From positions 1-44,516 of IMG/VR virus record IMGVR_UViG_3300047462_000707: a DNA stretch of 44,516 bases; one strand, given 5' to 3'. Of this stretch, positions 2,934 through 40,413 are shown piece after piece. Every line of letters begins with the position of its first letter. Positions within the stretch are counted from its first letter, which is position 1. The DNA comes from a virus. Below the pieces are notes generated by a model. The model was not told where the DNA came from and did no database searches. It saw only the letters and a program-made list of their open reading frames with translations. Position numbers and translations under genes: made by a program.

Positions 2934-2941
2934 GTCACGAC
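2934..2941 (-). promoter_or_regulatory. GTCGTGAC element, upstream of the 2893 gene
   Basis: Exact copy in the short gap between the genes ending at 2967 and starting at 2893, oriented with transcription. It is followed by TTCAGCATG, closely matching the ATCAGCATG that follows the copy at 30689. The downstream gene has its own Shine-Dalgarno. Function unknown; see the finding on this motif. Confidence 0.45.
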
Positions 2942-2966
2942 CGGTTTGCGCCGACTATTGCGCCCA

Positions 2967-3413
2967 CTACTGCGCCACGCCCGCCAGAATCTGGGGAATG
3001 CGCTCTGCCGCAATCACGGCCGGGGTTGGTGCGGTCGGGTTTGCCAGGTAATTGAGCGATTCCTGAGTCGATTTCAAATTGGGATCGATGTGCGAATTCG
3101 ATTGCACCGCCATCTGATAGGTTTGCCAGAACTCGACGATGACCGGATCCGGCGGAATGGCGGCGCTGCTCGATGTCGCTGGGACGCCATTGCCGGCCAG
3201 TGCCTTGATCAGCATGCGCTCGGCCGGTGTAAACGCCACGTAGAACTGCATGGTCGACAGGAGCGGATAGTTAGCCGGTGCGGCAAACACCGGCTGTCCC
3301 CCTTGCATGGTGACGATCCAGCCGACGTCGACGGGCGAGTTATCCGGCACTTCAAAATCGGCCGTGTCGGTGCCGGATGTCACCAGCGAGCTGGTGCCAT
3401 GGCCGATCACCAC
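2967..3413 (-). CDS. Phage tail-region protein of unknown function, start uncertain
   Basis: A 148-residue protein if translation starts at GTG 3413 (MVIGHGTSS). The middle has an Asn/Pro-rich beta part (ADFEVPDNSPVDVGWIV) and the C half is helical (FWQTYQMAVQS...LNYLANP). It lies among tail-fibre and fibre-associated genes, so a fibre chaperone or adhesin accessory is possible. No ribosome binding site precedes the GTG pair. The frame stays open upstream with no ATG, GTG or TTG, and a GAGG lies a proper distance before consecutive ATC codons near 3430-3437, so a non-standard start giving about ten more residues is conceivable. Confidence 0.6.
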   Translation of the reverse strand: MVIGHGTSSLVTSGTDTADFEVPDNSPVDVGWIVTMQGGQPVFAAPANYPLLSTMQFYVAFTPAERMLIKALAGNGVPATSSSAAIPPDPVIVEFWQTYQMAVQSNSHIDPNLKSTQESLNYLANPTAPTPAVIAAERIPQILAGVAQ

Positions 3414-3442
3414 GCCGTTTTGCGTAAAAACTGTTCTGATGA

Positions 3443-3688
3443 TTATTCCTCGATCGAAGACACGATGGCGGTACTGCTTGCCACGGTCGTCAGGGTGAAA
3501 GTCTGCCCAGCGGCCACGAAGGTATCGACCAAGCTGAGCACCGAGTTCGTCGCGATCCCGGCGACGCCATTGATGGCCACGGAAGCCGCCGCGCTTCCGT
3601 TGATGGCCGCACGCACCTTTGCGTTGGTCGCCGGCGTGTAGTTAAGTGTCGCGACACCGGATTGCGCCGCCTGGATTCCTGAAGCCAT
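3443..3688 (-). CDS. Small Ala/Ser/Thr-rich protein between tail-fibre genes
   Basis: An 81-residue protein, rich in Ala, Val, Thr and Asn, with no Cys and a two-residue acidic end. The start at 3688 has an AAGGGG ribosome binding site. It lies 9 bases after the stop of the large fibre protein and about 30 bases before the next gene, consistent with one operon. Low complexity and beta propensity fit a small virion or fibre-associated protein. Not recognised as a family. Confidence 0.6.
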   Translation of the reverse strand: MASGIQAAQSGVATLNYTPATNAKVRAAINGSAAASVAINGVAGIATNSVLSLVDTFVAAGQTFTLTTVASSTAIVSSIEE

Positions 3689-3697
3689 CTTCGCCCC

Positions 3698-5419
3698 TTA
3701 GTTGATGTTGCGCAGTGTGGTCGATTGGATGCCCTGGATGATCGCGTTCGAGCCCAGGATGTTCATCTTGACGCCCGGTGGCGAGTTATCCTGGGCGTTG
3801 ACGTTGTACGGCTGGGCAAACGGTGTCACCAAGGTGGCGCTCCCAACGTACTTGGCACTGGCCACGTTGCCTTGCGTGGCGGGCGTTTGCCACACGCCGA
3901 CCGGCACGCACGCCTGGATCGCGGTGATGATCAAGCCCATCGTGCCGCCCGTGCCAAATATGCCAAAAACCAGGCCGGCGTTCCGAGGCGTGAAACTGGG
4001 TGCGGTGATCGACAATATCGGCAGGTTGGTCTGCGTGCTGTTCGCAGGAAACCCCGCAACATTGCCGCAGCAAACGACGGCAAAGGTCGTTGCATTGAGC
4101 ACCATCAACCAATACAGGCCGGATGAGCTGAAGCCGCCGATCAGAATCAAGCCATTCGCCTGAATGACCGTGTTCATCGTGTTGACCGAGGCCGTGCCGG
4201 CGATCGGAGACGGCAGCGTGGTCGGGGCGATTTGCTGCACGCCAGCCGCGCTGTACTTGGTGTAATAGTTGAAAAACGGCGCGGCGCCGCCCGGATAGAA
4301 TGCCAGCACGCCGCCGTCCGCAGTCGGAAGCAAATTAATAGGCACGCCAACGGTACCGGTGGGCGCATACACGCTCACGAAGGCGCCCTGCAGCACCCCG
4401 GCCGCGCTGTATATCGCAAAGCCGCAAACGGCATTCGTCCAGTTCGGACAGGCGACCGCAAAGCCGCCGCCAGTCAGGGCCACCAGCGGGATGCCGCCGC
4501 CGGCGCCGCCGCCGTTCTGGTCGGTCGCGATCTGTGTTTCACCCACGGCCGCCACACCAGCGGATGTGAAGGTCTTGAAAAACGCGACACTGCCGGAGGA
4601 CGCGGTGGTAATCACGTAAGCGCAAACAAAATTGCCGCCGGTCAGCGCCACGATTGACACGCTACACGCGTATCCACCGCCGTGGATTGCCGTGACGTTC
4701 AACTGGGTAGCAGCCACCACGGTGGCGCCGGCGGCGCCAAATACCGCATAGAAGGGGGTGGCCTCAAGGGCGCCGGAAACGTTGAGTTCGGCCTGCAGTA
4801 CCACTGCGAAGCCACCGGTTGATAGGGCGGCGACGCCCAAATCCTGGGAGGCGCCGGCCGTCATGTTGACCTGCGCGTAGGCAACTGTCGGGCCGGTCAC
4901 CAAGACGCCGGTCTGGCTGAAGATGGCGAATGTCGGGATGCCGGCATACCCCGCTGCCGTGTTCGCTCCATACCAGAACAAGACGAAGTTTCCGTTGTTG
5001 AGCACCGTCACGCAGAGGCTCGTGCCCAGTCCGGCGCCGGCGACGTTCGATCCGGCGACGGTATTGATGGTGCCCTGCAAGACGCCGGCAGAGTTCCAGA
5101 ATCCAAACAGGATATTGGTGCCATTCGACCAGGCAAGCATGGTGTTGCCGGTGCCCATGGCAGCCATCGCCAGCCGGTTGAAATTCGTCCAGGCCGAAGC
5201 GCCGGTGAACGGCGTGCTAGGCGGAGCAACGAGCGCATTAACCTGGTTGGCGGGGTTAAAAATCGGCCGAGCCGCGCTAAAGGCCGTTGAAGGATCGGCG
5301 CCGTAATAGCCCAGGCCGTCAGCCCCAAGCACCGCAACCTGACCCCGTGCGACCGTTTCCCCCGCTGTGAAGGACGTTGCCGCGTCGCCGCCACCGGGCA
5401 AGAAATCACTGATATACAT
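3698..5419 (-). CDS. Large tail fibre / receptor-binding candidate with repeated Gly-rich blades
   Basis: A 573-residue protein starting MYISDFLPGGG at 5419, where the ATG overlaps the upstream stop (TAATG). After an N-terminal 60 residues, it contains several repeats of about 50 residues of the form GG-N/G-F-hydrophobic run (NGNFVLFW, TGGFAVVLQ, TGGNFVCAYV, TGGGFAVACP), as in a beta-propeller. Gene order directly after the collar-fibre gene suggests a distal fibre or receptor-binding part. The propeller fold is inferred from periodicity only, and no receptor can be named. Confidence 0.7.
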   Translation of the reverse strand: MYISDFLPGGGDAATSFTAGETVARGQVAVLGADGLGYYGADPSTAFSAARPIFNPANQVNALVAPPSTPFTGASAWTNFNRLAMAAMGTGNTMLAWSNGTNILFGFWNSAGVLQGTINTVAGSNVAGAGLGTSLCVTVLNNGNFVLFWYGANTAAGYAGIPTFAIFSQTGVLVTGPTVAYAQVNMTAGASQDLGVAALSTGGFAVVLQAELNVSGALEATPFYAVFGAAGATVVAATQLNVTAIHGGGYACSVSIVALTGGNFVCAYVITTASSGSVAFFKTFTSAGVAAVGETQIATDQNGGGAGGGIPLVALTGGGFAVACPNWTNAVCGFAIYSAAGVLQGAFVSVYAPTGTVGVPINLLPTADGGVLAFYPGGAAPFFNYYTKYSAAGVQQIAPTTLPSPIAGTASVNTMNTVIQANGLILIGGFSSSGLYWLMVLNATTFAVVCCGNVAGFPANSTQTNLPILSITAPSFTPRNAGLVFGIFGTGGTMGLIITAIQACVPVGVWQTPATQGNVASAKYVGSATLVTPFAQPYNVNAQDNSPPGVKMNILGSNAIIQGIQSTTLRNIN

Positions 5420-7104
5420 TACTGGAGTCTCCAATCGGCGCCGTTCCACCATAGGCGAAATTCCAGGCCAGACACGTTGCAAACCAGGTTGTCGAGGATT
5501 CCCATGACGGTCTTGCCGTTGTTGGCCAGGGTCAGGTTATTCGCGGCGAAGGTGCCGCCCGCGTCGATGAAATCCAATGCATCGCCATACTTTGGTGCCG
5601 CAGGCAAGGTAATCGTAATCGGACCTCCCGAGGTGTCAATCAGATAGATGCCAGGCCCGAGCGCATTGTTTGCGTTGATGACGCGCAGGGAACCACTGTT
5701 CGACAGCAGCGACCAGACGGCCGTGGCCGCCGTGCCGGTCGTGGTGCAGATCCACAGGTAATTGTCTGTCGGATCCCATACCATCGACGGCGGCGAGACG
5801 CCGACGACCGCGGCATTGCCGGACACGTGGCCGTTGGGGTTGCCGGAGTAGGAGACGATCGCCGACACGCCGCCGTTCTGGTCCGAGGCATTGAGCCGGG
5901 CCGCTGTGCCGAACTGGGAATAGACGACCGAAGTCAGGAGGAAGGACGAAGTCGGCGCATCGAAGGTAACCGTGGCCAGCGTGTCGTACGGCAAATCCCC
6001 AGGCTGCAGCGCTGCGCCGTCGCTACGCACCAGCGGCACAGGACCAGCACCGGCATTCAAGGTCGAGGCGTTGCTATTGGCGTGCGCCACGCGGAAGCGA
6101 AAGGTGTCGCCGTTCGCGTAGCCTGAGGTGACCGGCGTGGTCGCGATCACATAGGCGTTGGCGATCCCCGTATCGGTTTCGAACGCGCCCATGTCGGAAA
6201 CGGCGCGGTCGACGTAGGCAGTATTGGCCAAGGCGAGGCTATTGTCGTTCGGCGGCCGGGTAAGCGCACTGGCATTGGAGTAATACATCGCCGCGCCGTC
6301 GCTGTGGACCGTGTCCGCGTGCCCCTGCAGGATTGGCACCCCTCCCCCTCCTGCAACCGCAGCCGTCAGCGGGAAGTTGCCTGTCGTCATATTGATGACG
6401 ATCCACTTGCCGAACGCCGCCGGGAACGCGATGGTCGCCGGGGCTGCGAGCGCGCCGCTGACCTTGATCAGCGCGTTGTAAGCCTGGAGCGCAGTGATCG
6501 CGGTGACGCCGCCCGTGGTCTGCACGGAGAACTCCCAGGGACTTCCCGGATCCTGCCAGCTCATGTCGCCCGGCACCGCCGAATTTTTTTGCAACACCTG
6601 GTATTGGGTTCCGCCAGGCAGAATGGTGGCGGGCGTGACTGTGGAAAGCACCCAGGCATGCGTGGCAGTCACGACGTTCGGATCGACCGTGAAGGTGACT
6701 AATGCCGTATTCGACATGATCATGCCGAAATTGATCACCAGGTCGCTCGTGCTCCCGGATGTGGCCACGGCCTTGATCGTGTCCGGGAAATTGCAGATCG
6801 CGAACAGCGTGCCGGATGCAGTGAATACGCCAACCTCGCGCACGATGAAGCCGCCGACATTCGGTGGCAGGACCATCTCGGCCCACATCAGGTTCGCATT
6901 GCCCGCGTCGACGAAGAGATTGCTGATCGACGTGCTGTAGACCTGGTTGACCAAGGATGCCCGGCTCTTGTCAAGTGTAACGACCGCACTGCCGCCGCCA
7001 TCCCCAACCGCCATTGTCGCCAGTTGGATCGGCGTCTCGGACGCCAAGGCAGCGGCATACAACGCCGCGCCGGCATTGGTCAGTACGGCGGAATAAGTGG
7101 TCAC
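5419..7104 (-). CDS. Phage tail-collar fibre protein (gpH-like, DUF3751 N terminus)
   Basis: A 561-residue protein. The first about 150 residues match the tail-collar fibre pattern of P2 gpH-type proteins: LTNAGAAL near residue 9, TMAVGDGGG near 30, WAEMVLPPNVGGF and REVGVF near 75-95. The rest is beta-rich and variable, ending in a short C-terminal domain with Trp residues. It attaches fibres to the baseplate. The start is GTG at 7104; an in-frame stop lies just upstream and the family begins here, so no other start fits. GAGG sits almost on top of the GTG, too close for a normal ribosome binding site. A GTCGTGAC copy ends 13 bases upstream. Confidence 0.85.
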   Translation of the reverse strand: MTTYSAVLTNAGAALYAAALASETPIQLATMAVGDGGGSAVVTLDKSRASLVNQVYSTSISNLFVDAGNANLMWAEMVLPPNVGGFIVREVGVFTASGTLFAICNFPDTIKAVATSGSTSDLVINFGMIMSNTALVTFTVDPNVVTATHAWVLSTVTPATILPGGTQYQVLQKNSAVPGDMSWQDPGSPWEFSVQTTGGVTAITALQAYNALIKVSGALAAPATIAFPAAFGKWIVINMTTGNFPLTAAVAGGGGVPILQGHADTVHSDGAAMYYSNASALTRPPNDNSLALANTAYVDRAVSDMGAFETDTGIANAYVIATTPVTSGYANGDTFRFRVAHANSNASTLNAGAGPVPLVRSDGAALQPGDLPYDTLATVTFDAPTSSFLLTSVVYSQFGTAARLNASDQNGGVSAIVSYSGNPNGHVSGNAAVVGVSPPSMVWDPTDNYLWICTTTGTAATAVWSLLSNSGSLRVINANNALGPGIYLIDTSGGPITITLPAAPKYGDALDFIDAGGTFAANNLTLANNGKTVMGILDNLVCNVSGLEFRLWWNGADWRLQ

Positions 7105-9248: not shown

Positions 9249-9863
9249 TCAGAATGTAACGCTGGTCGATGTCGGTGCGCCCTGCACCGTGACAGCCTGC
9301 ACGACAACCTGCAGACCGTCGCCAACGGGAATTCCCGTGGCGCCGGACACATCGCTTATTCTTGGGTCGGCTGCTATTGGATCCTTGGCGTATTCGGCGG
9401 CCAGCAAGGCGGCGGTCGGGCCGTTTTTTGTGCCGATCAGCATGCGGATCAAGGTGCCGTAATCCTGGTGGAACAGCAATTCGCCCTGGTCGGTTTGGAG
9501 CAGGTTCTGTAAAGCCTGGTTCAGGTTGTCGACGCCGTCGACCAGGGCGAGGTCGCCATTCACCACTGTGAGCACGCCGCCTGTCAGCAGAATGTCACGG
9601 CCAAAGACAGCCGCTGGATCGCTGGTGGAGGCGCCGGGCGCGGAAGCCGGGATGGTGATATAGGAACCGTTGAGAAACACACCGGCGGTGGCCGCGCTTG
9701 GATCGTCCGTCAAATATGGCGGCACCATCTGGTTCAAGACGATGATTTCCGTCCAGAGGCTGGCGTCGCCAAGGTAGCGCGCCGCGACTTTCTGTAGTGT
9801 GTCGCCGTGCTCGGTCTGCACGAAGCGATAACCGGCCAGCGGCCGATCGAAAGGCGTCGTCAT
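9249..9863 (-). CDS. Baseplate protein with LysM domain fused to gp25-like wedge domain
   Basis: A 204-residue protein. Residues about 10-60 resemble a LysM module (RFVQTEHGDTLQKVAARYLGDASLWTEIIVLNQM). Residues about 85-200 carry a gp25/gpW-type wedge domain (GDLALVDGVDNLNQALQNLLQTDQGELLFHQDYG, with the conserved GELLF..DYG at about 130-141). In most contractile tails these are separate proteins, so here the peptidoglycan-binding-type adaptor and wedge are joined. It overlaps the preceding gene by four bases and is followed closely by the J-like gene. Confidence 0.82.
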   Translation of the reverse strand: MTTPFDRPLAGYRFVQTEHGDTLQKVAARYLGDASLWTEIIVLNQMVPPYLTDDPSAATAGVFLNGSYITIPASAPGASTSDPAAVFGRDILLTGGVLTVVNGDLALVDGVDNLNQALQNLLQTDQGELLFHQDYGTLIRMLIGTKNGPTAALLAAEYAKDPIAADPRISDVSGATGIPVGDGLQVVVQAVTVQGAPTSTSVTF

Positions 9864-11065
9864 TTGATGGCAATGCCTGCGGCAACGCTGCCAGCCAGGA
9901 GGCCGAGCGCAGCCGAGTTGATTGGTGCCAATACCGGATCGGCACTGTTGATTTGTACCAGGGCTTGTTGCGCCTGCGGCGAAACGGAGACCGTCGGAAC
10001 CGGCGAGCTCAGAGTGGCGATTGCCGGTGCGGTTGCCGGCGTGACGAGCGGTGCCGGCGCGTTCTGCGGCGCGCCCATGACGGCATAGAACGGATTGGTA
10101 TCGGCGTAGGGGCTCTCCGGACTGCCACCCGCCGTTGAGCTACAGTTCGAGGCGCCGTACAGCGGGGTATAGTCCGGGTAGATGGTTTGCTGGTTGACCG
10201 CGTTGTTGAGCAGGCAAAGGATGTTCGAATATTCCGACGAGACCATCATTGCGGCTGCGATCTGGTCGGTGGAATTGCCTGGCGCCGCAGCGATCGTCGC
10301 GAACATCGCATTGCCGGCCTGTGCCATCGATTTCGCGGTATTGAGCAGCGTCAGGGGGATGGATTGTGCGCTGCTGATCAGGTTCGATACGGAGCTGAAT
10401 ATGGCTTTCGTGGAATTCATGAAGGCCACGACCGGCCCGACGATCGAGGATTTCACGAAATTCACTGCGCTGGCGACGGCGCTGACGATGTTCGCAATCG
10501 ACTTGAGCATGCTGGTCAAACCGGACAGCGCCGATCCGATACCGGAATAGGAAGACGACGGATTGAATATCTTGCCGCGATAGGCAATCATCGAGATATT
10601 GAACTGCATCAGCAGCGGCCTGCTCCTGGAGCGGCGTAGCGTGAAGCTCATCGGTATCACGAGATCGATCGTAGAGTCGAGTGCATCGGCAAAAGCCACG
10701 CTGACCTTGCCGGGATCAAGCCCGGCCTTTACCGCTGCATTGCGGCGGCTATGCCATTCGGTAAAGACCTGGTTCTTGAGCTGCGCAAACTGGTCCATGC
10801 CGTCGCTGTTGCCAAACTGCGCGCCGCGCCAACCAGTATGACCACTGATGTTGATGTTCGCCAAACCGGGACCGAAATCGTCGGCCCAGCCACCGCCGAG
10901 CGTCTGCTGCACGGTTGCGCGCGTGACGTCGGTTCGCGTCAGCTCCTCGGGGCGGATCACCATGTCCAGGGTACGGCCGAGTGCCGGGGAGACGGTCAGG
11001 TCGGTCAGAACGAAACTGATCGGACGGTCGCCGGCTTTCTGGCTGGTTGGAGGCAGGACGGACAT
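9860..11065 (-). CDS. Baseplate hub adaptor-like tail protein
   Basis: A 401-residue protein directly before the LysM-gp25 gene (four-base overlap). The N half (to about 170) is conserved-looking: PEELTRTDVTRATVQQTLGG, INISGHTGWRG, FTEWHSRR, LVIPMSFTLRRS and LMQFNISMIAY, similar in style to the N-terminal part of XkdP-type LysM tail proteins that bridge hub and tube. The C half is Ala/Ser/Pro-rich and probably extended. The start MSVLPPTSQ has no Shine-Dalgarno, and a GTCGTGAC copy ends 14 bases upstream. The family link is inferred. Confidence 0.6.
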   Translation of the reverse strand: MSVLPPTSQKAGDRPISFVLTDLTVSPALGRTLDMVIRPEELTRTDVTRATVQQTLGGGWADDFGPGLANINISGHTGWRGAQFGNSDGMDQFAQLKNQVFTEWHSRRNAAVKAGLDPGKVSVAFADALDSTIDLVIPMSFTLRRSRSRPLLMQFNISMIAYRGKIFNPSSSYSGIGSALSGLTSMLKSIANIVSAVASAVNFVKSSIVGPVVAFMNSTKAIFSSVSNLISSAQSIPLTLLNTAKSMAQAGNAMFATIAAAPGNSTDQIAAAMMVSSEYSNILCLLNNAVNQQTIYPDYTPLYGASNCSSTAGGSPESPYADTNPFYAVMGAPQNAPAPLVTPATAPAIATLSSPVPTVSVSPQAQQALVQINSADPVLAPINSAALGLLAGSVAAGIAIK

Positions 11066-11079
11066 GACGCGATTGTTAG

Positions 11080-11087
11080 GTCACGAC
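11080..11087 (-). promoter_or_regulatory. GTCGTGAC element before the hub adaptor gene
   Basis: Exact copy ending 14 bases before the ATG at 11065, same orientation as the gene. The bases between motif and start lack any Shine-Dalgarno. It would start the baseplate/fibre transcription unit downstream of the accessory island. Confidence 0.5.
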
Positions 11088-23435: not shown

Positions 23436-24278
23436 ATGACGCAATACACGTTTTCGCTCGATCTGCCGTCGAATGGCGATATCAAGAAGGTCGTCGACGG
23501 TGCCGTACTGCCCAGGATCACCCAGGCAGTACACGCCATTGCCCAGCAGGCGCGCGTCAACTGGCAGGAAGCAGTAATGCAGGCGCGGATATGGAGCGGC
23601 GAAAAAATCCCTTATGTCGCGTCGATCAAGATGGAGATGACCGGAGCGCTTTCTGCGTTAGTGAGCACGGACTACAAGTACGCCGACGAGATTGAAACGG
23701 GACGGCCGCCGCGCGACCTGAAGAAGATGCTCGACACCAGCAGCAAGGTACGTCGCACGAAGGACGGGCGACGCTTTCTGGTCATTCCCATGCGCCACAA
23801 CACGCCGGGCAGCGAGGCGCTTGCGCCGGCCATGCCCACGGACGTCTACCAGATGGCGAAGGGGTTGTCCGCCAGTTCGGTCACCGGAAGTGGAACGCGA
23901 CCATCCGGGGAAGTGACCATCCTATCTAACAAGAGGGGCATGCGCGCAGCGAACACGCAAACACCCTACCTTTCACATATCAAGAGTGGCGGCCACTACC
24001 TCGTCAACAAGAGCAGCTATGCCTGGGGTGGCCGTCTGACGCCGGCAATGCTGCAGGGACAGTCGAAGGTGAATCAGCAGAGATATGCAGGCATGACGCG
24101 ATTCAAAACCTCGACCGGCGGATCAAGCTATTTGACCTTCAGGATCATGATGGAAGGATCGCCTGGTTGGGTTATCCCTGCGCAACCAGGAAAATTTCTC
24201 GCAAGGCAAGTCGTAAATAGCTTGGCGCCGGTGGTGGGGAAAATAATTACGGAGGCTTTGAAGCACTCTGCAGATTAG
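23436..24278 (+). CDS. Tail-completion/minor structural protein on the opposite strand
   Basis: A 280-residue protein starting MTQYTFSLDLPSN at 23436 with a strong GGGAGGA ribosome binding site; the longer upstream frame runs antisense through the neighbouring gene. The stretch YADEIETGRPPRDLKKMLDTSSKVRRTKDGRRFLVIPMRHNTPG (about 90-132) is of the kind seen in HK97 gp10/virion-morphogenesis proteins that complete head-tail joining. It is transcribed against the rest of the morphogenesis genes, which is unusual for such a gene. It could have its own promoter. The product family is inferred. Confidence 0.6.
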   Translation: MTQYTFSLDLPSNGDIKKVVDGAVLPRITQAVHAIAQQARVNWQEAVMQARIWSGEKIPYVASIKMEMTGALSALVSTDYKYADEIETGRPPRDLKKMLDTSSKVRRTKDGRRFLVIPMRHNTPGSEALAPAMPTDVYQMAKGLSASSVTGSGTRPSGEVTILSNKRGMRAANTQTPYLSHIKSGGHYLVNKSSYAWGGRLTPAMLQGQSKVNQQRYAGMTRFKTSTGGSSYLTFRIMMEGSPGWVIPAQPGKFLARQVVNSLAPVVGKIITEALKHSAD

Positions 24279-29714: not shown

Positions 29715-30682
29715 GTGTTCTCCTTCTGTGTGCGTTCTTGCATCCCGCGTTGTAAATCGTCGAGAAACCGTTCGACGTATTCGGATGCGACCGACCTGGA
29801 AAGCTGGAAACGCGAACTGGCTTCCAGGACCATGTCCTTGACGCCGTGCGAGACTTCCCCCGTCATGACCAGTTGCGCGAACCGGTCGCGGAAATTCCAG
29901 TAGGCGAGGACACCGCCGTTATCCATCCCAGCGGCGTCGCCGTTTCCCTGACGAAGGGCGGATCCGCCTGTCAGAGTCGCGGAATCGGTTCCGTAGCCGG
30001 CGGTCAAGGTCTTGCGCAAATCGAGTCCCTGAGCACTCCAGGACTTCGCCAATACGCCGATGGGGATGGTCGATACCTCTGGGACATCCGGGTTGACGGG
30101 GGTCTTGCTGAAACCGATATTGGTCCAGCGCACTTTTTTGATCACGGGGTAGGCCGCGCCAGTGGAAGCATCGATTGCGGTACTTTTTTCCAGGACGGCG
30201 CCACCGACCGAGGGATACCAGACTTGCGGCGGGTTCAATTCGGTCAGCGAGGACCAGAACAGGTTGGCCTTTTCGGCCGCAGGGCCGATCCCGGAACTGA
30301 TGTGTCCCTTGACGAACATGCGTTTGCCGTCGATACGGGCGTCCACCGGGCGGCCGATCTCGAACCATTCGTAGTTCGGAATGCCGGGCCAATTCTTCGC
30401 CGGGTTCGGTTTGCCGATCTGCGTGTAATGGTCGAGATCGAGGTTGCCGTATTTGAGGTAATAGTCAGCGGAATCGGCGAGCGCCTGCGCCAGGATCACT
30501 TCGTTCTGATAGTCGCGCGCCTCGTTTGATGCTTCCAGGTAGACGAAGCGCTGGCCGCCTTCGGTTACCGGCTGGGCCTTGAGCACGTGCGAGATACTGA
30601 TATGCGACGGCAGTGAATCGAGCAGCGCCTGGTGGCGAAGTTCGATGGGGTGTGCTGCCATGTCCGAGTTCATGACCGCCAT
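29711..30682 (-). CDS. Prohead protease
   Basis: A 323-residue protein from ATG 30682 (MAVMNSD); the in-frame ATG at 30673 is an alternative. The serine-protease core has a His85 context (NLDLDHYTQIG, 80-90) and a candidate Ser158 (WYPSVGGAVLEK), with the IGRPVDARIDGKRMFVKGH strand pair between, as in HK97/T4-type prohead proteases. The C part carries TAGYGTDSATLTGGSALR (227-244), nearly the same as capsid residues 38-54, suggesting a shared cleavage or assembly peptide. It matures the prohead by removing scaffold and N termini. It overlaps the scaffold gene. Confidence 0.82.
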   Translation of the reverse strand: MAVMNSDMAAHPIELRHQALLDSLPSHISISHVLKAQPVTEGGQRFVYLEASNEARDYQNEVILAQALADSADYYLKYGNLDLDHYTQIGKPNPAKNWPGIPNYEWFEIGRPVDARIDGKRMFVKGHISSGIGPAAEKANLFWSSLTELNPPQVWYPSVGGAVLEKSTAIDASTGAAYPVIKKVRWTNIGFSKTPVNPDVPEVSTIPIGVLAKSWSAQGLDLRKTLTAGYGTDSATLTGGSALRQGNGDAAGMDNGGVLAYWNFRDRFAQLVMTGEVSHGVKDMVLEASSRFQLSRSVASEYVERFLDDLQRGMQERTQKENT

Positions 30683-30688
30683 GCTGAT

Positions 30689-30696
30689 GTCACGAC
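30689..30696 (-). promoter_or_regulatory. GTCGTGAC element before the protease gene
   Basis: Exact copy ending 6 bases before ATG 30682 and 15 before in-frame ATG 30673, followed by ATCAGCATG. It overlaps the stop region of the preceding small gene. No strong Shine-Dalgarno separates motif and start. Confidence 0.5.
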
Positions 30697-30968
30697 CCGG
30701 ACGACGGCCTCTGTGTATTCGTCGATTGGCTGTTTTGCGCGAGGAGGCGTTGCAAACCGGCACGCTGCATGATCCAGGATTGGTAGGCTTCGGCCTGGCT
30801 ATCGTCGGTGAGTACCCCAGCGTACGAGACGCAGTCGATCAATTTGGATAGGCGCTCGCACTCCGCCTCGGCGGCGGCATAGAGGTTTTGTTGAACGCGG
30901 CGCGCGTGGCGCGATAGCGTCGCATTCTTGCCGACCATGTCGCATAACTTGTCGAACGAAGGCGCCAT
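30690..30968 (-). CDS. Small helical protein upstream of the protease
   Basis: A 92-residue protein, mostly helical with Cys residues (LCDMVGKNATLSRHARRVQQ, AAEAECERLSKLIDCVSY) and a polar tail. The start MAPSFDKL has no Shine-Dalgarno; a GTCGTGAC copy ends 14 bases upstream. It is located between SNF2 protein and protease in the head operon. Family not recognised. Confidence 0.6.
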   Translation of the reverse strand: MAPSFDKLCDMVGKNATLSRHARRVQQNLYAAAEAECERLSKLIDCVSYAGVLTDDSQAEAYQSWIMQRAGLQRLLAQNSQSTNTQRPSSGS

Positions 30969-31001: not shown

Positions 31002-34000
31002 TCAGAACGTCGCCGTCTGCGCCGACTGCTGCTTGTGGAACAGGAAGGCCGCCAGACCGGTATCGTCCAGGCCGTCCAACGGGTTGGTGACGACCTCGCG
31101 CAGAGCCGACTTGCGCGCCAGGCGGGTGCGCGCGCGTCGTTCCTGCGCATGGTTTGCAACCAAGTCGTGCAAGTCGATATTGTTCTGTTGACCGATGCGG
31201 TCGATACGTCCGGCGCGCTGGGCATGGACCATGGCGGTGTCGGGCGTGTCGAATTGCGCCAGCCAGGATCCCGATTGCAGGTTGGCGCCGACCGCGCCGG
31301 CATCCGAGCAGACGACGATGTCGGCTTTGCGAGGACCGGAGTCGGGGTTGAAGGCGCGGATCTTGGCCGCCTTGTCCTTCGACGAGTCCTTGCCGGTGAC
31401 GACGATGACGCGGTGGCCTTCGGCTTCCAGGCGTGACTTGATTTGACCGACCGCATCGAGCGAGCGTGCGAAGACCACGCCGGGACGGCCGCCGTGTTCC
31501 TGCGCCAGGCTGGCGACCTTGTTAAGTTTTCCGGAATCGGGGTGGGCATTGAGCGCGCGGTTGATTGCCGCGTTCTTGATCACGCCCAAGGCCTTGGTCA
31601 GGCTATGCGCCACCGCTTCGTCCCGCGTCTCGTCGGCGCCGAACGATTCGGGAGACAGCGCTTTCAAGGCGGCAACGTCGGCGCCGCCGGCCATCTTGGC
31701 GATGCGCGCCGCCGCCACGTGGCGATCCACCGCATCGAGCGCCGCCCGTTGCGAATCGGTCAGCTCGACCTGGTGAACGTGCCGCGTCACGTTGACGTCG
31801 GGCGCGATGCGCGCGGTGTAGGCATGGCGCGCGAGTTCACGGCGTAGTCCATCTTGCGCGTACACGGTGTCGCCGCCGTAACGGCGCATGAAGGCCGCCC
31901 GATCACGGTAGCGCCCCGCATCCATTTTTGCGAGCAGGTCGAACGCTTCCGAGGCATCGTTCTTGACCGGATCACCCGAGGCGTGGACGTAGTAATCGGC
32001 GTTGTCGGTCACACCTTGCACGGCATTGGACATGCGACTGTTCTCTTTGCCTTCGCGGTTGAGCAGGCCGTGCCCTTCGTCGGCCATGGCATAGTCGAAG
32101 GCAATACCCTCCTTGTCCAAGGCGGCCTTGACATAAGCTTTGCGCTCGGCTTGGCTCATGCCGTCGAGTTTCGCTGCGACTGTGTCCGGCGTGGCGCCTT
32201 CCTGTCCGGCGGCAATCTTGAGGATGTCGTCGCGGAACGACTGATGGGTCACCACATGAAAATGCGTGCCGGGATCCTTGTATGCAGCCAACCGTTCCTC
32301 GTTCGTGGCGCCTGGCTGGCAATGCCAGTTGAATTGACCTGGCTGCAGGAAGCGCAAGGCTTCGGCGCCGAACTGGCCTTGCACGATGGACGGAACCACG
32401 AACACGCCCTTCTTGATCTTGCCCTCGCTGTGCAAGTCGGCAAACGCGCCCAGGCCGATGCCGGTCTTGCCGGAACCGACACCCAGACCCATGATGGCGC
32501 GCTTGTTGGCCTTGATGAACTTGATGGCGCGCTGGCGCTTGATGCCGTCTTTGCCCGACATCGAGGCATGGAACAGTTTGACGGGCTGGCCGGGCACAAA
32601 ATTGCGGCCGGCGACACCCATCATGGCCGCCAGCTTGTTCTCGGCAGCCTGGCCGATGGTATGTCGTTCGTCCGGCCCAAGCGGCTTGCGCTGTTCGTCC
32701 GCGCCCCGATGCGCCCCTTCGGCACTAGCGGCGGGCGCCTGCTCTGCGGAAAAGAAACCCATTTGGGCCTGTTCGAATGCTGCCTTGCTCTCTTTGGCGG
32801 CATCGAGCTTGTCCGCCACCTTGCCCGCTGCGTAGGCGCCGTTGGCGTCTCGCTCGCGCAAGCCGTCGATCAACTTGCGCTCGGACCGGATACGCGCTTC
32901 GCGTGCCGCCGGGTCGACGGCGTCGAGGTGGTTCAGGTTGCCGCGAATGACGGTTTTACCGAGTTTTAGCGGCTGACCGGGTACCAGCGTGTTGTAGTGC
33001 CGGGCGAACTCGCTGGAAACCTTTGAGCGAACCAGGTCCTGGATTGCGGCGTAGGCCTTATTTTGGCCGCGCATGGTCTTTGCGTAGTCGGGCCAGGTGA
33101 GGCCGCTGCCACGCAGCTTGTCGGTCAATTCCCTGCGCGCCGACTCCCATGCCTGGTGGTTTGGATTGGCGGTTGTTTCGTCGAACATATCGACGACGGT
33201 TTTGTGCGGCTCCTGCGCCATGTGTTGGTCAAGCTCGTCACGCAGGCGCGCGTGCTCCGATGACTCCTTGGCGACATGGGTGCGGAAATAGCTGCGCAGC
33301 GCACGCCGGTCGCCATCGTGCAATTCCCCGATCTGCTTGTAGGCAGAAGAACCGACCGGCTCTGCCGATAGCGCACGATGAAGCGCTTCCTGCACCACCT
33401 TGTCGGCCACGAAGGTCTGGCTATTCAAGGTGGAGCGTGTGCCGCCCCATCGGTTCTTGACGAAGTCGTCCGCGTAGTCGTTGAACAGGGGCGCCAGCTC
33501 CTCGGCACGCTGCAATTGCTTGCCGCCGGGCTGCTTGTTGGGTGCAACCTGGTCGAGCGCGGCGCGATAGTCGATGGCGCGTTCCGCGCCGACCCTCTGG
33601 AAATAGTCGGCCGACTGCAGGTCGCACAAAATGTCGGCCGGCATGTCGCCGTCGGCCGTGCGGCTGCCGATATGGTCCCGTAGCGACTGCGCCAGGTCGG
33701 CTCCCGGTGCAAAAGGCTCGGCCATCGACATGGCGACGCCCGGCTGCACTTTCAGCGCCAGGTCGGCACGGTTGGCGAATCCCTTGGGCAACCAGTCGTC
33801 TTCGTCCTCGGCGCCCTTCATGATGGCCAGGTTGCGTCGTACGCGCTCGATGCCGGCAGCATCGACCGGCTGGGCCAGGCGCTCCATGCCAGACGCGGCT
33901 ATCGTGACCACGTGGCTGGTGCCGGCTTTTTCCAATTTGTAGTCCCCCTTCTTGAGTCCGATGGCACGCAATTGCTTGATGGCAGACACGAGCGGGGTGT

Positions 34001-35579
34001 CGCCCAGCGAAACGGGTACGGCATCGCGCGATTTCTCGCGCAAAGCCATGACCAGGGCAGCATTGGCTTCCATTTCGCCCAATGCTCGACCCAGCACCTT
34101 GTCGGCATCGGCCAAGGCTTCCATACGTTTGCGGTTCAGTTCGGCTTTGACCAGGACGTCTTCTGCACCGGCGGCCGGATCAAATTCCATCGCCGCCGCC
34201 TGTTCCTGCAGGGCGGCAACATCGGCTAACGCCGAAGCAGACAATTCCTGGTGATGCTGCAGGTGGTAAGCGGCCATGGAGTCGGCAATCTCGTTGATCC
34301 GCTCGCCACCGAGATCGGTATGCAGTCGTCGCGCCAGGATCTGCGCGGCAGCGGCGGCGCCCAGGACGTCCACCACAGAGCGATCGAGCAGCGCCTCGCC
34401 GCCGGCCGCGAGTGCCAGGGCATTGAGTGCATTGAAGGCGCCGGCGGCGCCGTGGTGTTCCAGTTCGGTTCCCTGGGGATCGCGCTTGCTGACAGCGGCG
34501 AGGAAGGTTCTGGTTTGCGCCGTGCGCAGGCTGTCGGCAATACTTCTCTCGATATCGCCATCCGGAATTGGGGTGCTAAGCGGCGTGCTTTCCAACACGT
34601 AGGCCTGCGGCTCGGTTGAGCGCTCGATGGCGGCATTGGCGGCGCGCGCGGATTGTTCGATGGCGGCAAGCTGTTTTTGCGCCTTGAGTAGCGCTACCGC
34701 CTGCTTGACATCGACCAGGAGGGCGCGCAAATCCGGCTGGCCGATGTTGACCTTGTCCAGTTCGGCTTTGATTTGTTGCGCGACGCTCGGGTGCTTCGGT
34801 GGCGTGGCGCCCGGCTTGTCGACCTCGCTGGGCGAGGCTTGCGCTTGAACGGTGTCTTTTTCTGCCTGGATTTCTTCGGGCGTCACGCCGGCCGCGTCGG
34901 CGCGCGCCTGGTATTGCGGATCGAATCCCAGGCCGTGGTTGCCGCGCACGGGATCGAGGTCGGCGACCGACAGTTGCGTGACGTCGTCGGTGTGCAGCGG
35001 CATTTCTCCCGTGAAGGCTTGCTGCCTCGCGTCGGCGTCGATCAATAGGCGTTTGCGCTGGAGTTGCACCGCTTCGCGCGCAGCGCCGAGCAAGGTGCGG
35101 TGATGTTGCTTTTGCGCCTTGACGCGCGCCGCCTCGGACAGGTCTGCGTGCAATGCGTCGTCGAACGCAAGCGCTTCACTGTCCCAGCCCATGGCCTCGG
35201 CGACGGTATGGATAAAGGCATGCTCGGCGGCTCGCTTCTTGAGCGCAAGGTCTTTGCGCGCTTCTTTCTTGATGCCGGCAACGCCAAGCTCCGCATCCTT
35301 TTTACGCTGCAAGGCTGCGGCGACACGGCGCTGTTTGCCGCGCTCAGCGGATTCCTTGGCATAGGCGCCGGCGGATTTGACGCCGGTCAGTTTCAAATAG
35401 TTGAGTTTGCCGCCGGCGCCGCCGATGACGTGGACTGTTGCCGACCCTGGCGCGACAGGCTGTACCAGTACCGGCTGTCCCTTGCCGTCGCCATGGGGAT
35501 GTACCGTGATCCAGCGCGCGCCGGGCGGGATGTCCGAGGATTTGAGAAAAAATAAGGCAAAATTCGCAGGACACACCAT
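31002..35579 (-). CDS. Giant SNF2-family helicase protein in the head operon
   Basis: A 1525-residue protein. The C-terminal about 500 residues are a SNF2-type two-lobe ATPase: motif I GVGSGKTG (about 1030-1040), motif II DEGH (about 1165), and the motif V/VI region with SDAGAVGANLQ then QRAGRIDRIGQ (about 1450). The N terminus has a WITVHPHGDGKGQPVLV element and the centre is long and helical, with no seen methylase motif. Its place between minor head protein and protease suggests a virion-packaged internal protein, as with P1 DarB-type anti-restriction factors, but it could act on DNA in the cell. It lacks a Shine-Dalgarno and has the GTCGTGAC element 14 bases upstream. Confidence 0.8.
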   Translation of the reverse strand: MVCPANFALFFLKSSDIPPGARWITVHPHGDGKGQPVLVQPVAPGSATVHVIGGAGGKLNYLKLTGVKSAGAYAKESAERGKQRRVAAALQRKKDAELGVAGIKKEARKDLALKKRAAEHAFIHTVAEAMGWDSEALAFDDALHADLSEAARVKAQKQHHRTLLGAAREAVQLQRKRLLIDADARQQAFTGEMPLHTDDVTQLSVADLDPVRGNHGLGFDPQYQARADAAGVTPEEIQAEKDTVQAQASPSEVDKPGATPPKHPSVAQQIKAELDKVNIGQPDLRALLVDVKQAVALLKAQKQLAAIEQSARAANAAIERSTEPQAYVLESTPLSTPIPDGDIERSIADSLRTAQTRTFLAAVSKRDPQGTELEHHGAAGAFNALNALALAAGGEALLDRSVVDVLGAAAAAQILARRLHTDLGGERINEIADSMAAYHLQHHQELSASALADVAALQEQAAAMEFDPAAGAEDVLVKAELNRKRMEALADADKVLGRALGEMEANAALVMALREKSRDAVPVSLGDTPLVSAIKQLRAIGLKKGDYKLEKAGTSHVVTIAASGMERLAQPVDAAGIERVRRNLAIMKGAEDEDDWLPKGFANRADLALKVQPGVAMSMAEPFAPGADLAQSLRDHIGSRTADGDMPADILCDLQSADYFQRVGAERAIDYRAALDQVAPNKQPGGKQLQRAEELAPLFNDYADDFVKNRWGGTRSTLNSQTFVADKVVQEALHRALSAEPVGSSAYKQIGELHDGDRRALRSYFRTHVAKESSEHARLRDELDQHMAQEPHKTVVDMFDETTANPNHQAWESARRELTDKLRGSGLTWPDYAKTMRGQNKAYAAIQDLVRSKVSSEFARHYNTLVPGQPLKLGKTVIRGNLNHLDAVDPAAREARIRSERKLIDGLRERDANGAYAAGKVADKLDAAKESKAAFEQAQMGFFSAEQAPAASAEGAHRGADEQRKPLGPDERHTIGQAAENKLAAMMGVAGRNFVPGQPVKLFHASMSGKDGIKRQRAIKFIKANKRAIMGLGVGSGKTGIGLGAFADLHSEGKIKKGVFVVPSIVQGQFGAEALRFLQPGQFNWHCQPGATNEERLAAYKDPGTHFHVVTHQSFRDDILKIAAGQEGATPDTVAAKLDGMSQAERKAYVKAALDKEGIAFDYAMADEGHGLLNREGKENSRMSNAVQGVTDNADYYVHASGDPVKNDASEAFDLLAKMDAGRYRDRAAFMRRYGGDTVYAQDGLRRELARHAYTARIAPDVNVTRHVHQVELTDSQRAALDAVDRHVAAARIAKMAGGADVAALKALSPESFGADETRDEAVAHSLTKALGVIKNAAINRALNAHPDSGKLNKVASLAQEHGGRPGVVFARSLDAVGQIKSRLEAEGHRVIVVTGKDSSKDKAAKIRAFNPDSGPRKADIVVCSDAGAVGANLQSGSWLAQFDTPDTAMVHAQRAGRIDRIGQQNNIDLHDLVANHAQERRARTRLARKSALREVVTNPLDGLDDTGLAAFLFHKQQSAQTATF

Positions 35580-38050: not shown

Positions 38051-39791
38051 CACACCTCATCCAGGGCGAATACCGGCGGCAGACCGAACGCCTTGCCGAA
38101 ATCCGGGGTGCGCGCTTCGTCGCCGAATTGCGGGGTAGATGCCGCGCCGCTGTCTTCGCGACCAGCGATACCCTGCGCTTCCACTGGTCTCTGTCCGCTC
38201 TCGTCGGCCGTGTCAGGCGATTGTCGCGGTGTTTGTTGGGGCGACTCCTGATCCGCCGCATCCGGCAGATTGACTTGCAGCCACGGCTGGATCAGCGAAG
38301 GGTTGACGGGCGCATCGCCGATCGGCCCATCCATGGCCTGATAGCCCTCTTCCGCGCGGATTTCATTGACGGTCAAGACCAGCTTGCGCATTTCCTGCTT
38401 GTTGTCCGTATCTTCGGGATCGAGTCCGGTCCAGCGAAACACGAAGTCCTCGGAAAACTCGGCGACGATGAAGTCGGAGAAGGTGTTTTCGTAAGAGGAC
38501 AGCAACGGCCGGAGTCCTTGGACGCAGCAAGCTTTTCTTCGGTATCCGCCCCGGATAGCGGCGAGCTGTTGCCGCCCGAGAACGAGTCGAAATTGATTTC
38601 CGCCGGCGACATGCCGTACAGCGCGCAAATGATCGACGTCAGGAACGTCATCCACTTGGAGAAATACATCTCGTTGAATTCGACGCCGAAGCGCTCGAAG
38701 CTTGCCTTCGATTCCTGGTCTTTCGAGATCATCACCGGCAGGGACCAGGCGTTGTTGATGCCCTTGACCATGGCATTCCAATACATCTTGAATGCCTGCA
38801 GATCCTTGGCATCGTAATTGCCGGTCAGGTGCAGCATGCCCTTGGGGATCGCGTTCGAATCGAAACCCTTGATGTTGTAGGTCATGGCATTGATGTAGCC
38901 GGTGACGACGCGGATCAACAATTCCGTTTCGGACAGCCCGTAACCGCCGACCGTGACGTCGGCACGAGGGTTGCGGCATTCGTAGACCAGGTCCTCGTGG
39001 GTATAGGCCGTGGTGATTTGTCCTTGGACGAGCTGAAGCGCGAAGATTTCGTCGTCGCCCCAGTAGCCCTCCTCGGTACAGAGACGGATCGTGGCGCCAT
39101 CGACGGCATAGAAGCCGTCTATGCCCTGTTTCATGTCGCGCTTCCATTCCAGCTCGATACCCGTCGAATCCATGGTAAGCGAGTCGCGCACCGAACGCGC
39201 CATGAACTGGCCGAAGGCGTCGCGGCGCAGTGCCTTGCGCAGGCGTGGCTTGAATTCCCAGCCGCAGTTCATCATGAAACGGTTCAGGCGATTGCGCGCC
39301 TCCTTTTCCGATTTTGTCAACTGATGGTCGCGATCGACGTGGCGAATCTCGAATCCGGGCATCTCGTTACTCGAGTCGGCGATCCGGCAAAAGCGCTGCA
39401 CCTGGCGGCTGCGGGTCATGATGACGGCGTTCAGGATCGGCGTCTGGCCAACCATCATGCGCAGGGAGTCGAACGACAAGCCCGACGGCCGCTCCCAGAA
39501 GTCGCCGTGGATGTTCACTTGCCAGTCGTCGAGCATGACCGACTTCATGCCCGGCTTGTTCAGTTTCAGGTTGCGCGATGGGAACGGCACGATGTTGGCG
39601 TCAATGGCCTTGTGAATCGACGCTTCTTCGAATTGGTGCACCGCTTCGTCGATGATGCGCCGGACGTTTTCTGGCGGGAGCAAGTCGGTTGCCGTCGGCA
39701 GGTGCTCGCGCTGCAGTTGCGAGAGCGCATCGGTACGTTCATCGTGTGGCGCCGCCGGGTCAAATGCAGCGACAGTGGCGGGGTCGGACAT
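38050..39791 (-). pseudogene. Portal protein, interrupted by a frameshift
   Basis: Reading from ATG 39791 (MSDPATVAAF, AAGGG ribosome binding site), the frame gives a portal-type protein for about 425 residues: IIDEAVHQFEEASIHKAI, VMLDDWQVNIHGDFWERPS, YEFRHVD-type loop, LRKALRRDAFGQF, TYNIKGFDSNAIPKG, ICALYGMSPAEINFDSFSGGNS. After EEKLAASKD (about 38514) the frame degenerates, while the -1 frame continues with LRPLLSSYENTFSDFIVAEFSEDFVFRWTG and runs to 38050. No slippery heptamer is at the junction, so a deleted base (or sequencing error) is more likely than programmed frameshifting. Without repair the portal would lack its C-terminal part and the phage would not assemble. Confidence 0.75.
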
Positions 39792-39895: not shown

Positions 39896-39938
39896 ACGAG
39901 CATCGTCCGAACCTCATGGGATAGGCAGACGGAACAAA

Positions 39939-40193
39939 ATGGAAAACGCAATGGCGCAAACCGCAATGCTCGACAAGAATTCGGAAGCCTGGCGCCACGA
40001 ATGTGAGGCACGCGCGATATTGGCCTTGCCGACGCCTTCCGCCCGCAACGGGCACTTATCCAAGATCGAGAAGGCGCGCGGCGCGACAGTGCGCGAGCGA
40101 CTGGAAAGCACGGTCTATTCGCTGCGCGAACAACAAATCGCCGCCGGCCGCGCCGCACTGAAGCAAATCAAATCACTCGGTCAAAAGAAGTAG
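39939..40193 (+). CDS. Small DUF7696-like phage protein
   Basis: An 84-residue protein (MENAMAQTAMLDKNS) with WRHECEARAILALP (about 16-29) and a helical basic C half (LSKIEKARGATVRERLESTVYSLREQQIAAG). Such small WRHECE..ALP proteins are common near phage terminase or portal genes; the DUF number is from memory. The ATG at 39951 (MAQTAM) could be the real start. It reads away from the portal gene. Confidence 0.6.
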   Translation: MENAMAQTAMLDKNSEAWRHECEARAILALPTPSARNGHLSKIEKARGATVRERLESTVYSLREQQIAAGRAALKQIKSLGQKK

Positions 40194-40272
40194 TAGCAAA
40201 AGACGCCTTCACCTACTACCGGCCGTGAATGTAGCCGGGCCGGCGCCTAAACGTACGCTTCATCTTTCCGCA

Positions 40273-40291
40273 GCAAGTTCCATCAACTTGC
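40273..40291. terminator. Hairpin after the small plus-strand gene
   Basis: GCAAGTT pairs with AACTTGC around CCATC, 80 bases after the stop at 40193. No clear T run follows, so termination is uncertain. Confidence 0.3.
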
Positions 40292-40323
40292 GGCGCCATT
40301 GTCGCTTGCCGGCGACGCGTCAT

Positions 40324-40352
40324 TTGTCTTCCTCATTTCGGCATGCTATTTT
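40324..40352 (+). promoter_or_regulatory. Sigma-70-like promoter for the GIY-YIG gene
   Basis: TTGTCT, 17 bases, TATTTT, with a TGC just before the -10 (extended -10). It lies about 80 bases before the start at 40435 in a relatively AT-rich stretch. Confidence 0.4.
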
Positions 40353-40406
40353 TATAACCAACTTGTGCGACATATCGCCATTCCTCCAACCGGCCGGAGT
40401 AAGACT

Positions 40407-40413
40407 TCGTGAC
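40407..40413 (+). promoter_or_regulatory. TCGTGAC element before the GIY-YIG gene
   Basis: Core of the recurrent word (TTCGTGAC) pointing along the plus strand, 21 bases before ATG 40435 and followed by TACAGCAT, recalling the TTCAGCAT and ATCAGCAT after other copies. Confidence 0.35.

What the first reader, a model, noticed from the sequence alone, without database searches (positions are those of the whole stretch)
2934..40413. Recurrent directional GTCGTGAC word at phage gene starts: candidate novel promoter or leader element
The exact word occurs nine times on the minus strand (2934, 6668, 7118, 11080, 23378, 30689, 30983, 35594, 39823). Eight of these are at or between gene boundaries although about nine tenths of the window is coding. 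All eight read with transcription, 3-40 bases before a start codon. One-base variants sit at 11345 and 18524 (minus) and before the plus-strand genes (23400, 39888, 40407). By chance one would expect roughly one to two copies on both strands together in 44.5 kb, mostly inside genes. It matches no sigma-70 box and no Shine-Dalgarno. A phage-specific promoter, an operator of a phage regulator, or an RNA leader signal would all fit.
Basis: partly seen in the sequence, partly recalled or inferred. Interest (0 to 1): 0.85.

Follow-up and report, generated by a model that had tools for sequence, protein, structure and literature searches.

The report
New phage promoter starting leaderless genes
The repeated word is most likely the core of a promoter, a "start copying here" signal, shared by a wide group of bacterial viruses; it lies just ahead of many virus genes and seems to make messages that begin right at the first letter of the protein code, probably with the help of a virus protein still to be found.

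Summary
GTCGTGAC occurs 9 times, all on the minus strand (expected 1.9 on both strands; 0 of 100 shuffles reach 9). It is one block of a longer element, [G]TCGTGA[C/T]-NNN-A-NN-[A/C]T, often followed 7 nt on by a start codon or an A. The element occurs in 36 of 36 clade records tested, window included (481 matches, 448 on the majority strand; reversed control 2), and in 11 of 11 bacterial-contig loci with the same capsid gene. Its A and T are spaced like A-11 and T-7 of a bacterial -10 box, which puts the start of transcription at offset 22. Two results support this: 105 of 247 sites have a start codon at offset 22 or 23 (mean 2.9 at ten nearby offsets), and the 126 sites without an ATG there still have A in 51% (background 20%). 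GTCGTGAC thus lies at -22 to -15, upstream of the RNA, with no conserved -35. Best reading: a phage-specific promoter class, many copies giving leaderless mRNA, read by host RNA polymerase with a phage-encoded specificity factor. The factor is not identified; two adjacent Cys-rich early proteins present in 16 of 16 genomes are the lead. No transcript was measured.

The parts
2926..2941 (-). promoter element (GTCGTGAC + A/T pair); predicted start near 2919; gene start ATG 2893 with an AAAGG ribosome site
   Evidence: 18.4 bits
7110..7125 (-). promoter element upstream of the tail-fibre gene 5419-7104; GTG start at offset 21 (leaderless class)
   Evidence: 21.8 bits; Phage_tail_fib
11072..11087 (-). 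promoter element upstream of gene 9860-11065 (phrog_1011 virion structural protein); ATG at offset 22 (leaderless class)
   Evidence: 17.6 bits
18516..18531 (-). promoter element (GTCGTGAT variant) upstream of gene 18110-18481; ATG at offset 50 with an AAAAAGG site
   Evidence: 20.8 bits
23370..23385 (-). promoter element upstream of gene 22526-23362; ATG at offset 23 (leaderless class)
   Evidence: 23.7 bits
23400..23415 (+). divergent promoter element (GCCGTGAC) for the inverted gene 23436-24278; start with a GGAGGA site
   Evidence: 11.8 bits; own-strand motif in 28 of 30 inverted cases, this one included
23436..24278 (+). gene of unknown function (phrog_16819), inverted within the structural operon
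30681..30696 (-). promoter element upstream of gene 29711-30673 (orthologue of genes annotated as prohead or capsid maturation protease in Mecenats66 and Dolphis); ATG at offset 23 (leaderless class)
   Evidence: 19.9 bits
30975..30990 (-). promoter element with T in place of the conserved A; ATG at offset 22 for gene 30690-30968
   Evidence: 16.1 bits
35586..35601 (-). promoter element upstream of the helicase gene 31002-35579; ATG at offset 22 (leaderless class)
   Evidence: 21.3 bits
39815..39830 (-). promoter element upstream of the portal gene 38373-39791; ATG at offset 39 with a GAAGGG site
   Evidence: 18.6 bits
39888..39903 (+). divergent promoter element (GTCGTGAA); its gene was not settled
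   Evidence: 15.9 bits
40406..40421 (+). promoter element (TTCGTGAC) upstream of gene 40435-41922 (GIY-YIG domain)
   Evidence: 16.7 bits
6668..6675 (-). exact word inside the tail-fibre gene, without the A/T pair: taken as a chance copy
   Evidence: not among the matrix hits

Best explanation
The word is the upstream half of a phage-specific promoter, consensus GTCGTGA(C/T)-G-N-C-A-N-N-(A/C)-T, with transcription starting about 7 nt after the last T. Shown from sequence: the extended motif, its strand and gene-start bias, its spread through the clade, and a start-site base signature at offset 22. Inferred: the A and T act as A-11 and T-7 of a -10 element opened by the host's multisubunit RNA polymerase. 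GTCGTGAC then lies at -22 to -15, replaces the missing -35, and is read by a phage-encoded specificity factor (an activator or a divergent sigma). About 43% of sites put the start codon on the predicted first transcribed base, giving leaderless mRNA; others give short leaders, often with a ribosome site. It stands ahead of structural genes above all (12 of 21 PHB04 sites above 14 bits lie at 1-39.2 or 88-94 kb, the structural and lysis blocks), so a late promoter is likely, though timing was not measured. Least certain: the factor. The lead is a pair of adjacent genes at the head of the early region, a ~175-aa Cys-rich protein and a ~95-aa zinc-ribbon protein.
For: Word and strand bias. Extended motif in 138 then 247 non-identical sites. 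36 of 36 clade records (window included) carry it, with reversed control 2 in those records, and 0 of 4 outgroup records. Start codon at offset 22/23 in 105 of 247 sites, mean 2.9 at ten nearby offsets; A at offset 22 in 51% of 126 sites without an ATG at 21-24, p about 1e-14. Depositors' own gene starts fall at offset 21-23 in 8 of 21 PHB04 sites and 8 of 17 Touem01 sites above 14 bits (one search read by eye). SD-like 4-mers precede the ATG in 7 of 111 sites with ATG at 22/23 but in 43 of 97 with the first ATG at 32-59. Terminators end at -12 to 0 in 18 of 247 sites against 4 of 4,940 random positions. Inverted-gene test: own-strand motif in 28 of 30 inverted cases and in 0 of 3 co-directional ones. 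In seven bacterial genomes 33 of 38 pattern-plus-ATG matches lie in the phage contig or prophage region. No column from -60 to -1 before the word exceeds 0.06 bits.
Against: No 5' RNA end has been measured. No sigma-70 region 2 match in any of 16 genomes and no identified factor; co-occurrence of the Cys-rich pair with the motif is a single clade-level correlation. The T at -12 of a normal -10 box is not conserved (C or G instead). Offset 16 shows a weak G excess (44% against 30% in non-ATG sites), which a start further upstream could explain. 46 of 247 sites have no ATG opening an ORF of 30 codons or more at offsets 18-59, and a few high-scoring sites seem to lie inside genes (e.g. PHB04 77017). 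Mecenats66 has only 2 pattern matches. Random positions for the terminator control were not limited to intergenic DNA. Many loci are close relatives, so counts are not independent.
Confidence: 0.82

Rival explanations
1. Promoter of a phage-encoded RNA polymerase (single-subunit or another divergent type) that reads the whole 16-bp block; transcription would start next to the block, at offset 16-17, leaving 5-6 nt before the ATG.
For: One compact block with no -35; weak G excess at offset 16.
Against: Strong start signature at offset 22, little at 16-17; A/T spacing fits a sigma-type -10; no PF00940 match in 16 records (no control genome rang, so inconclusive); seven large or unknown proteins of Dolphis, Touem01 and PHB04 gave no polymerase family in Pfam.
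Confidence: 0.09
2. Operator or stoperator: a directional repressor-binding site that controls or silences phage transcription.
For: Short asymmetric directional site at gene starts; several relatives may be temperate: integrase annotated in PHB04, Touem01, ST4 and Dolphis; one paper predicts three temperate phages, naming Touem01 among them (PMC11256456, passages).
Against: An operator need not carry a -10-like A/T pair at fixed spacing with a start signature 7 nt on, nor put the start codon at one fixed offset.
Confidence: 0.05
3. RNA leader or translation-start signal acting in the mRNA, like the start-associated sequences of cluster K mycobacteriophages (recalled, not looked up).
For: Close to start codons; 6 of 9 minus-strand window elements within 15 nt of a start.
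Against: The word lies upstream of the inferred start of transcription; it holds no ribosome-binding sequence; in the second class of sites the start codon is further off and often has its own SD-like site (43 of 97).
Confidence: 0.03
4. Chance or composition artefact.
For: Synonymous shuffles give a mean of 2.1 exact words inside ORFs, 5 observed.
Against: Reversed-pattern control 2 against 481 in 36 records; reversed and column-permuted matrices average below 1 hit per genome above 14 bits.
Confidence: 0.01

Closest known systems
Phage sigma-factor promoters of phiEco32 and 7-11 (PMC4331800, abstract and passages read)
   Same: One short block upstream of phage genes with no -35 described, about ten copies in 7-11, found there by computation.
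   Different: Their motifs are AT-rich (TAATGTATA in phiEco32) and a phage sigma is known; here the block is GTCGTGAC plus a degenerate -10, and no sigma was recognised.
Late promoters of jumbo phages AR9 and phiKZ (PMC5312081, abstract and passages read)
   Same: A short consensus at a fixed small distance from the start; that paper states phage transcripts are often leaderless, so leaderless phage mRNA is not new in itself.
   Different: Those are read by a phage multisubunit RNA polymerase (AACA-6N-TA/G; TATG); none was recognised here (one family search and nine proteins only), and AR9 leaders are 26-491 nt.
Extended -10 sigma-70 promoters (recalled)
   Same: A-11 and T-7 spacing, start about 7 nt downstream, no -35 needed.
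   Different: No TG at -15/-14 (C/T then mostly G), T-12 not conserved, and a near-invariant CGTGA at -20 to -16.
Activator-dependent phage promoters: T4 MotA, P2 Ogr, Mu C (recalled)
   Same: A phage protein redirects host polymerase with a weak or absent -35.
   Different: Their sites lie around -30 or further upstream; here the site abuts the -10 element.
Mycobacteriophage stoperators and start-associated sequences (recalled)
   Same: Directional repeated words at gene starts.
   Different: This word carries promoter geometry and lies upstream of the inferred RNA start.

Membership tests
sigma-type (-10 element) promoter | conserved A and T four positions apart, as A-11 and T-7 | tested here: met
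   A11 in 122 of 138 and T15 in 122 of 138 exact-word sites, chosen without using these positions
sigma-type (-10 element) promoter | start base about 7 nt downstream of T-7, purine preferred | tested here: met
   A in 51% of 126 sites without an ATG at offset 21-24, background 20%; base composition only, no RNA
sigma-type (-10 element) promoter | -35 hexamer | tested here: not met
   no column from -60 to -1 before the word above 0.06 bits; promoters with an extended -10 can lack it
classical extended -10 promoter | TG at -15/-14 | tested here: not met
   offset 7 is C (80%) or T (20%), offset 8 is G in 57% (the pattern itself allowed only C or T at offset 7, while all 138 exact-word sites have C)
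phage-sigma promoter (phiEco32/7-11 kind) | sigma factor encoded in the genome | tested here: inconclusive
   PF04542 0 of 16 genomes; a divergent phage sigma could be missed
single-subunit RNA polymerase promoter | T7-type RNA polymerase gene | tested here: inconclusive
   PF00940 0 of 16, but nothing rang in the 14 control genomes
leaderless mRNA | start codon at the first transcribed base | tested here: inconclusive
   start codon at inferred +1 in 105 of 247 sites and SD-like 4-mer in only 7 of 111; needs RNA mapping
P2 Ogr-type zinc-finger activator | candidate factor belongs to a described activator family | tested here: not met
   one representative of each candidate protein scanned: no Pfam family above its cut-off; one is a zinc ribbon by predicted fold
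start-associated sequence | element includes the ribosome-binding site | tested here: not met
   no SD in the word; SD-like sites lie downstream of it in the led class

The most novel reading that the evidence does not exclude
A new kind of transcription-initiation control. A phage-encoded pair of Cys-rich/zinc-ribbon proteins, made from adjacent early genes, docks on host RNA polymerase and reads GTCGTGAC at -22 to -15 in place of the -35. It works across alpha-, beta- and gammaproteobacterial hosts and yields a regulon rich in leaderless mRNA, insulated in part by terminators that abut or overlap the promoter.
Probability: 0.22. Interest if true: 0.82.

Novelty: new variant of a known kind. 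Interest (0 to 1): 0.64.

Why it matters
It supplies a ready promoter map for a broad, little-studied clade of ~90-kb proteobacterial myoviruses and likely temperate relatives (36 records here). It suggests that some annotated start codons need revision, and it predicts leaderless translation as a routine strategy at about 43% of the sites rather than as a curiosity. The near-invariant CGTGA at -20 to -16 points to an unidentified phage factor that reprograms host RNA polymerase in three classes of Proteobacteria. Two concrete candidate genes make that testable.

Tried and rejected
AraC-family activator as the factor: rejected as general, present in 6 of 16 genomes although all 16 have the motif. 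Small Cro-like HTH protein upstream of the helicase: 11 of 16, weaker. TraR/DksA-like and excisionase-like proteins: clusters in 4 of 6 named phages (functions), not pursued. The inverted gene as a regulator: no Pfam match; I came to use it as a natural test instead. Host sigma-70 promoters ahead of the candidate pair: none at 10 of 12 or better within 700 nt in 6 of 6 phages, so how the early genes start is open. Hexamers enriched near ORF starts without the motif model gave nothing clear beyond GTCGTG, first in PHB04 and third in L024; the method did not recover it in the window. Fold of the Cys-rich protein: no match with E <= 0.001 and best second-look Z 2.6 over 44 residues. Zinc-ribbon protein: rows headed by Elf1, RNA polymerase and TFIIS-type ribbons and topoisomerase I, but Z <= 4.7 and Foldseek E >= 0.5; a lead only. 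PDB by sequence: nothing for the first at E <= 1; for the second only weak hits, best E 0.017 to a ribosomal ribbon. Literature: no paper seen that reports the motif (GTCGTGAC with phage, 20 of 240 hits listed, phage names, 9 papers listed; passages of PMC9503643 and PMC11256456; listings). The library holds no bioRxiv preprints and few subscription papers.

Rows dropped: sites within 60 nt of a locus start or 120 nt of its end, and sites identical over 50 nt; L019 (gene cut at its start) from the inverted-gene count; loci L001-L008, L050-L072 and L120-L125 from site counts because they repeat other stretches or are stubs. Near-identical loci remain (L030/L031, L022/L023, L020/L021/L032/L036, L127/L128), and L126 is the same contig as L016.
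Full report
CHECK. The exact word is at the nine stated places, all on the minus strand, none on the plus strand; 100 dinucleotide-preserving shuffles average 1.91 and never reach 9. With one mismatch there are 64 against 44 expected, so loose variants are mostly noise. Aligned on the word, most copies at gene boundaries share a second part: A at offset 11 and T at offset 15 (offset 0 is the first G). The copy at 6668, inside the tail-fibre gene, lacks it; the copy at 30983 has T for A. The variants at 18524 (minus) and 23400, 39888 and 40406 (plus) have it; the variant at 11345 does not.

WHAT THE WINDOW IS. A 44.5-kb virus record carrying the structural genes of a contractile-tailed phage: terminase, portal, capsid, sheath, baseplate, tail fibre, and a large helicase. 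Its capsid relatives include Touem01, Mecenats66, PHB04, ST4, Dolphis, Jeremy, phiT5282EW and fHe-Yen8-01, then Thermus phages and SPO1-like phages at lower identity. PHB04 and Touem01 are about 92-94 kb, so by comparison the window lacks the other half.

THE ELEMENT IN RELATIVES. Of 31 further loci (29 viral contigs and the two halves of PHB04), 28 hold the word, 25 of them on one strand only, the strand of the capsid gene in the viral contigs. Over 138 non-identical exact-word sites, A11 and T15 are each present in 122, with A or C at 14 in 120, G common at 8, and A and T common at 22 and 23. A matrix built from these gives sharply separated scores: above 14 bits there are 21 sites in PHB04, 17 in Touem01, 12 in ST4, 15 in Dolphis, 8 in fHe-Yen8-01, 3 in Mecenats66 and 11 in the window, while reversed and column-permuted matrices average below 1 per genome. 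The matrix was trained on these genomes too, so the fixed pattern is the cleaner count: TCGTGAYNNNANNMT hits 36 of 36 clade records, window included (2 to 24 each, 481 in all, 448 on the majority strand); the reversed pattern hits twice in those records; three Thermus phages and a SPO1-like phage have none. In 11 of 11 loci from bacterial contigs with the capsid gene (alpha-, beta- and gammaproteobacteria by the record names, including a Microvirga chromosome; one, L126, is the contig of L016) the element is present, 1 to 6 copies. In seven of those bacterial genomes, 33 of 38 pattern-plus-ATG matches fall in the phage contig or prophage region (placed by comparing coordinates, one of them 26 kb from the capsid gene in Methylovulum); the reversed control hit once. 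So it is not a host regulon.

WHERE TRANSCRIPTION STARTS. Among 247 non-identical sites in 89 loci, a start codon of an ORF of 50 aa or more lies at offset 22 in 69 and at 23 in 36; ten neighbouring offsets average 2.9; 46 sites have no ATG with an ORF of 30 codons or more at offsets 18-59. Depositors' own gene calls agree: an annotated start at offset 21-23 in 8 of 21 PHB04 and 8 of 17 Touem01 sites above 14 bits (one search read by eye). An independent test uses the 126 sites with no ATG at 21-24: there offset 22 is A in 51% (background 20%, p about 1e-14) and offset 21 is C in 46%. This is what a start site 7 nt after T-7 should look like. SD-like 4-mers precede 7 of 111 ATGs at 22/23 but 43 of 97 first ATGs at 32-59, as expected if the first class is leaderless and the second has short leaders. 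In the window six of nine minus-strand elements are of the leaderless class (7118 with GTG, 11080, 23378, 30689, 30983, 35594) and three have leaders (2934, 18524, 39823).

PROMOTER CONTEXT. A terminator hairpin plus T-run ends within 12 nt before the element in 18 of 247 sites, against 4 of 4,940 random positions, which were not restricted to intergenic DNA. In four cases from named phages the hairpin instead begins at offset 16-17 and its T-run runs up to the ATG, so the inferred start lies inside the left arm. I infer that read-through RNA would terminate while new RNA would escape. One gene (window 23436-24278, phrog_16819) is inverted within the operon in 30 of 33 loci examined. 28 of these 30 have an element on its own strand (9.4 bits or more; exceptions L013 and Mecenats66) and 30 of 30 have one for the opposite gene (16.9 bits or more); in the 3 loci where the gene is co-directional (L030, L031, L035; two nearly identical) neither is there. 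Promoters are expected to behave so; codon or packaging signals are not.

MECHANISM. Shown: motif, spacing, strand, clade conservation, start signature. Inferred: A11 and T15 are A-11 and T-7 of a -10 element, hence host-type polymerase; GTCGTGAC at -22 to -15 stands in for the -35, of which no trace was seen, and is read by a phage factor, since the core holds across hosts of three classes. No sigma region 2 match in 16 of 16 genomes; no T7-type polymerase match, but without a positive control. AraC proteins occur in only 6 of 16. Two adjacent genes at the head of the early region occur in 16 of 16: a ~175-aa protein with eight invariant Cys in the six named phages, and a ~95-aa protein with seven. 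In the phage collection both match only the same nine records of this clade. The second has a match just downstream of the first in 46 of 47 viral loci (the 47th, L108, ends just past the first). The first occurs in 6 of 7 bacterial genomes with the capsid gene; in the Methylovulum genome it lies on another contig than the capsid gene. The ~95-aa protein is predicted with confidence (pLDDT 90.7) as a zinc ribbon; second-look rows are headed by Elf1, RNA polymerase and TFIIS-like ribbons, at Z of 4.7 or less. The other (pLDDT 84.1) has no clear relative among the chains compared. This is correlation, not proof.

KNOWN OR NEW. Short single-block promoters read by a phage factor are a known kind (phiEco32, 7-11; AR9, phiKZ), and leaderless phage mRNA is known (AR9 paper). 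This sequence, its position directly upstream of a -10-like element, and its link to leaderless genes in this clade were not found in the searches made. I therefore file it as a new variant of a known kind.

Noticed in passing
window 18605-20026 (+): Gene with SEFIR/TIR domain (PF08357 E 9e-20; phrog_11745) inserted against the operon in a lower-GC stretch (51%) between tail genes; a possible phage-borne defence or exclusion gene.
   Followed up: partly
window 40225-41922 (+): GIY-YIG domain protein (PF01541), divergent from the portal gene, with its own element at 40406; the true start is probably 40435.
   Followed up: partly
window 24332-25315 (-): Low-GC gene (about 48% in its 2-kb bin) with no Pfam match at E 0.01, between the inverted gene and the next structural gene; looks like an insertion.
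   Followed up: no
window 1-663 (-): Lipase/alpha-beta hydrolase-like protein (PF01764) at the window's edge.
   Followed up: no
L044 3890, L046 28081, L048 30137, L049 13974: Terminator hairpin overlapping the element: left arm begins within two bases after the conserved T and the T-run abuts the ATG.
   Followed up: partly
L047 37375-41043 (+), L040 14216-17833 (+): Large (~1,200 aa) phage proteins with a C-terminal ADP-ribosyltransferase domain (PF03496), each with a leaderless-class element ahead; possibly proteins acting on the bacterial host.
   Followed up: partly
L135 (Microvirga lupini contig 734779-756203): Relative lying inside a 1.44-Mb bacterial contig, with the pattern-plus-ATG at 6 places over about 37 kb: a candidate prophage.
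   Followed up: no
phage records OR261032 and MT711888: Annotated starts lie 30 codons (ST4 portal) and 54 codons (Dolphis 14482) downstream of the in-frame leaderless start predicted by the element; gene starts in this clade may need revision.
   Followed up: partly
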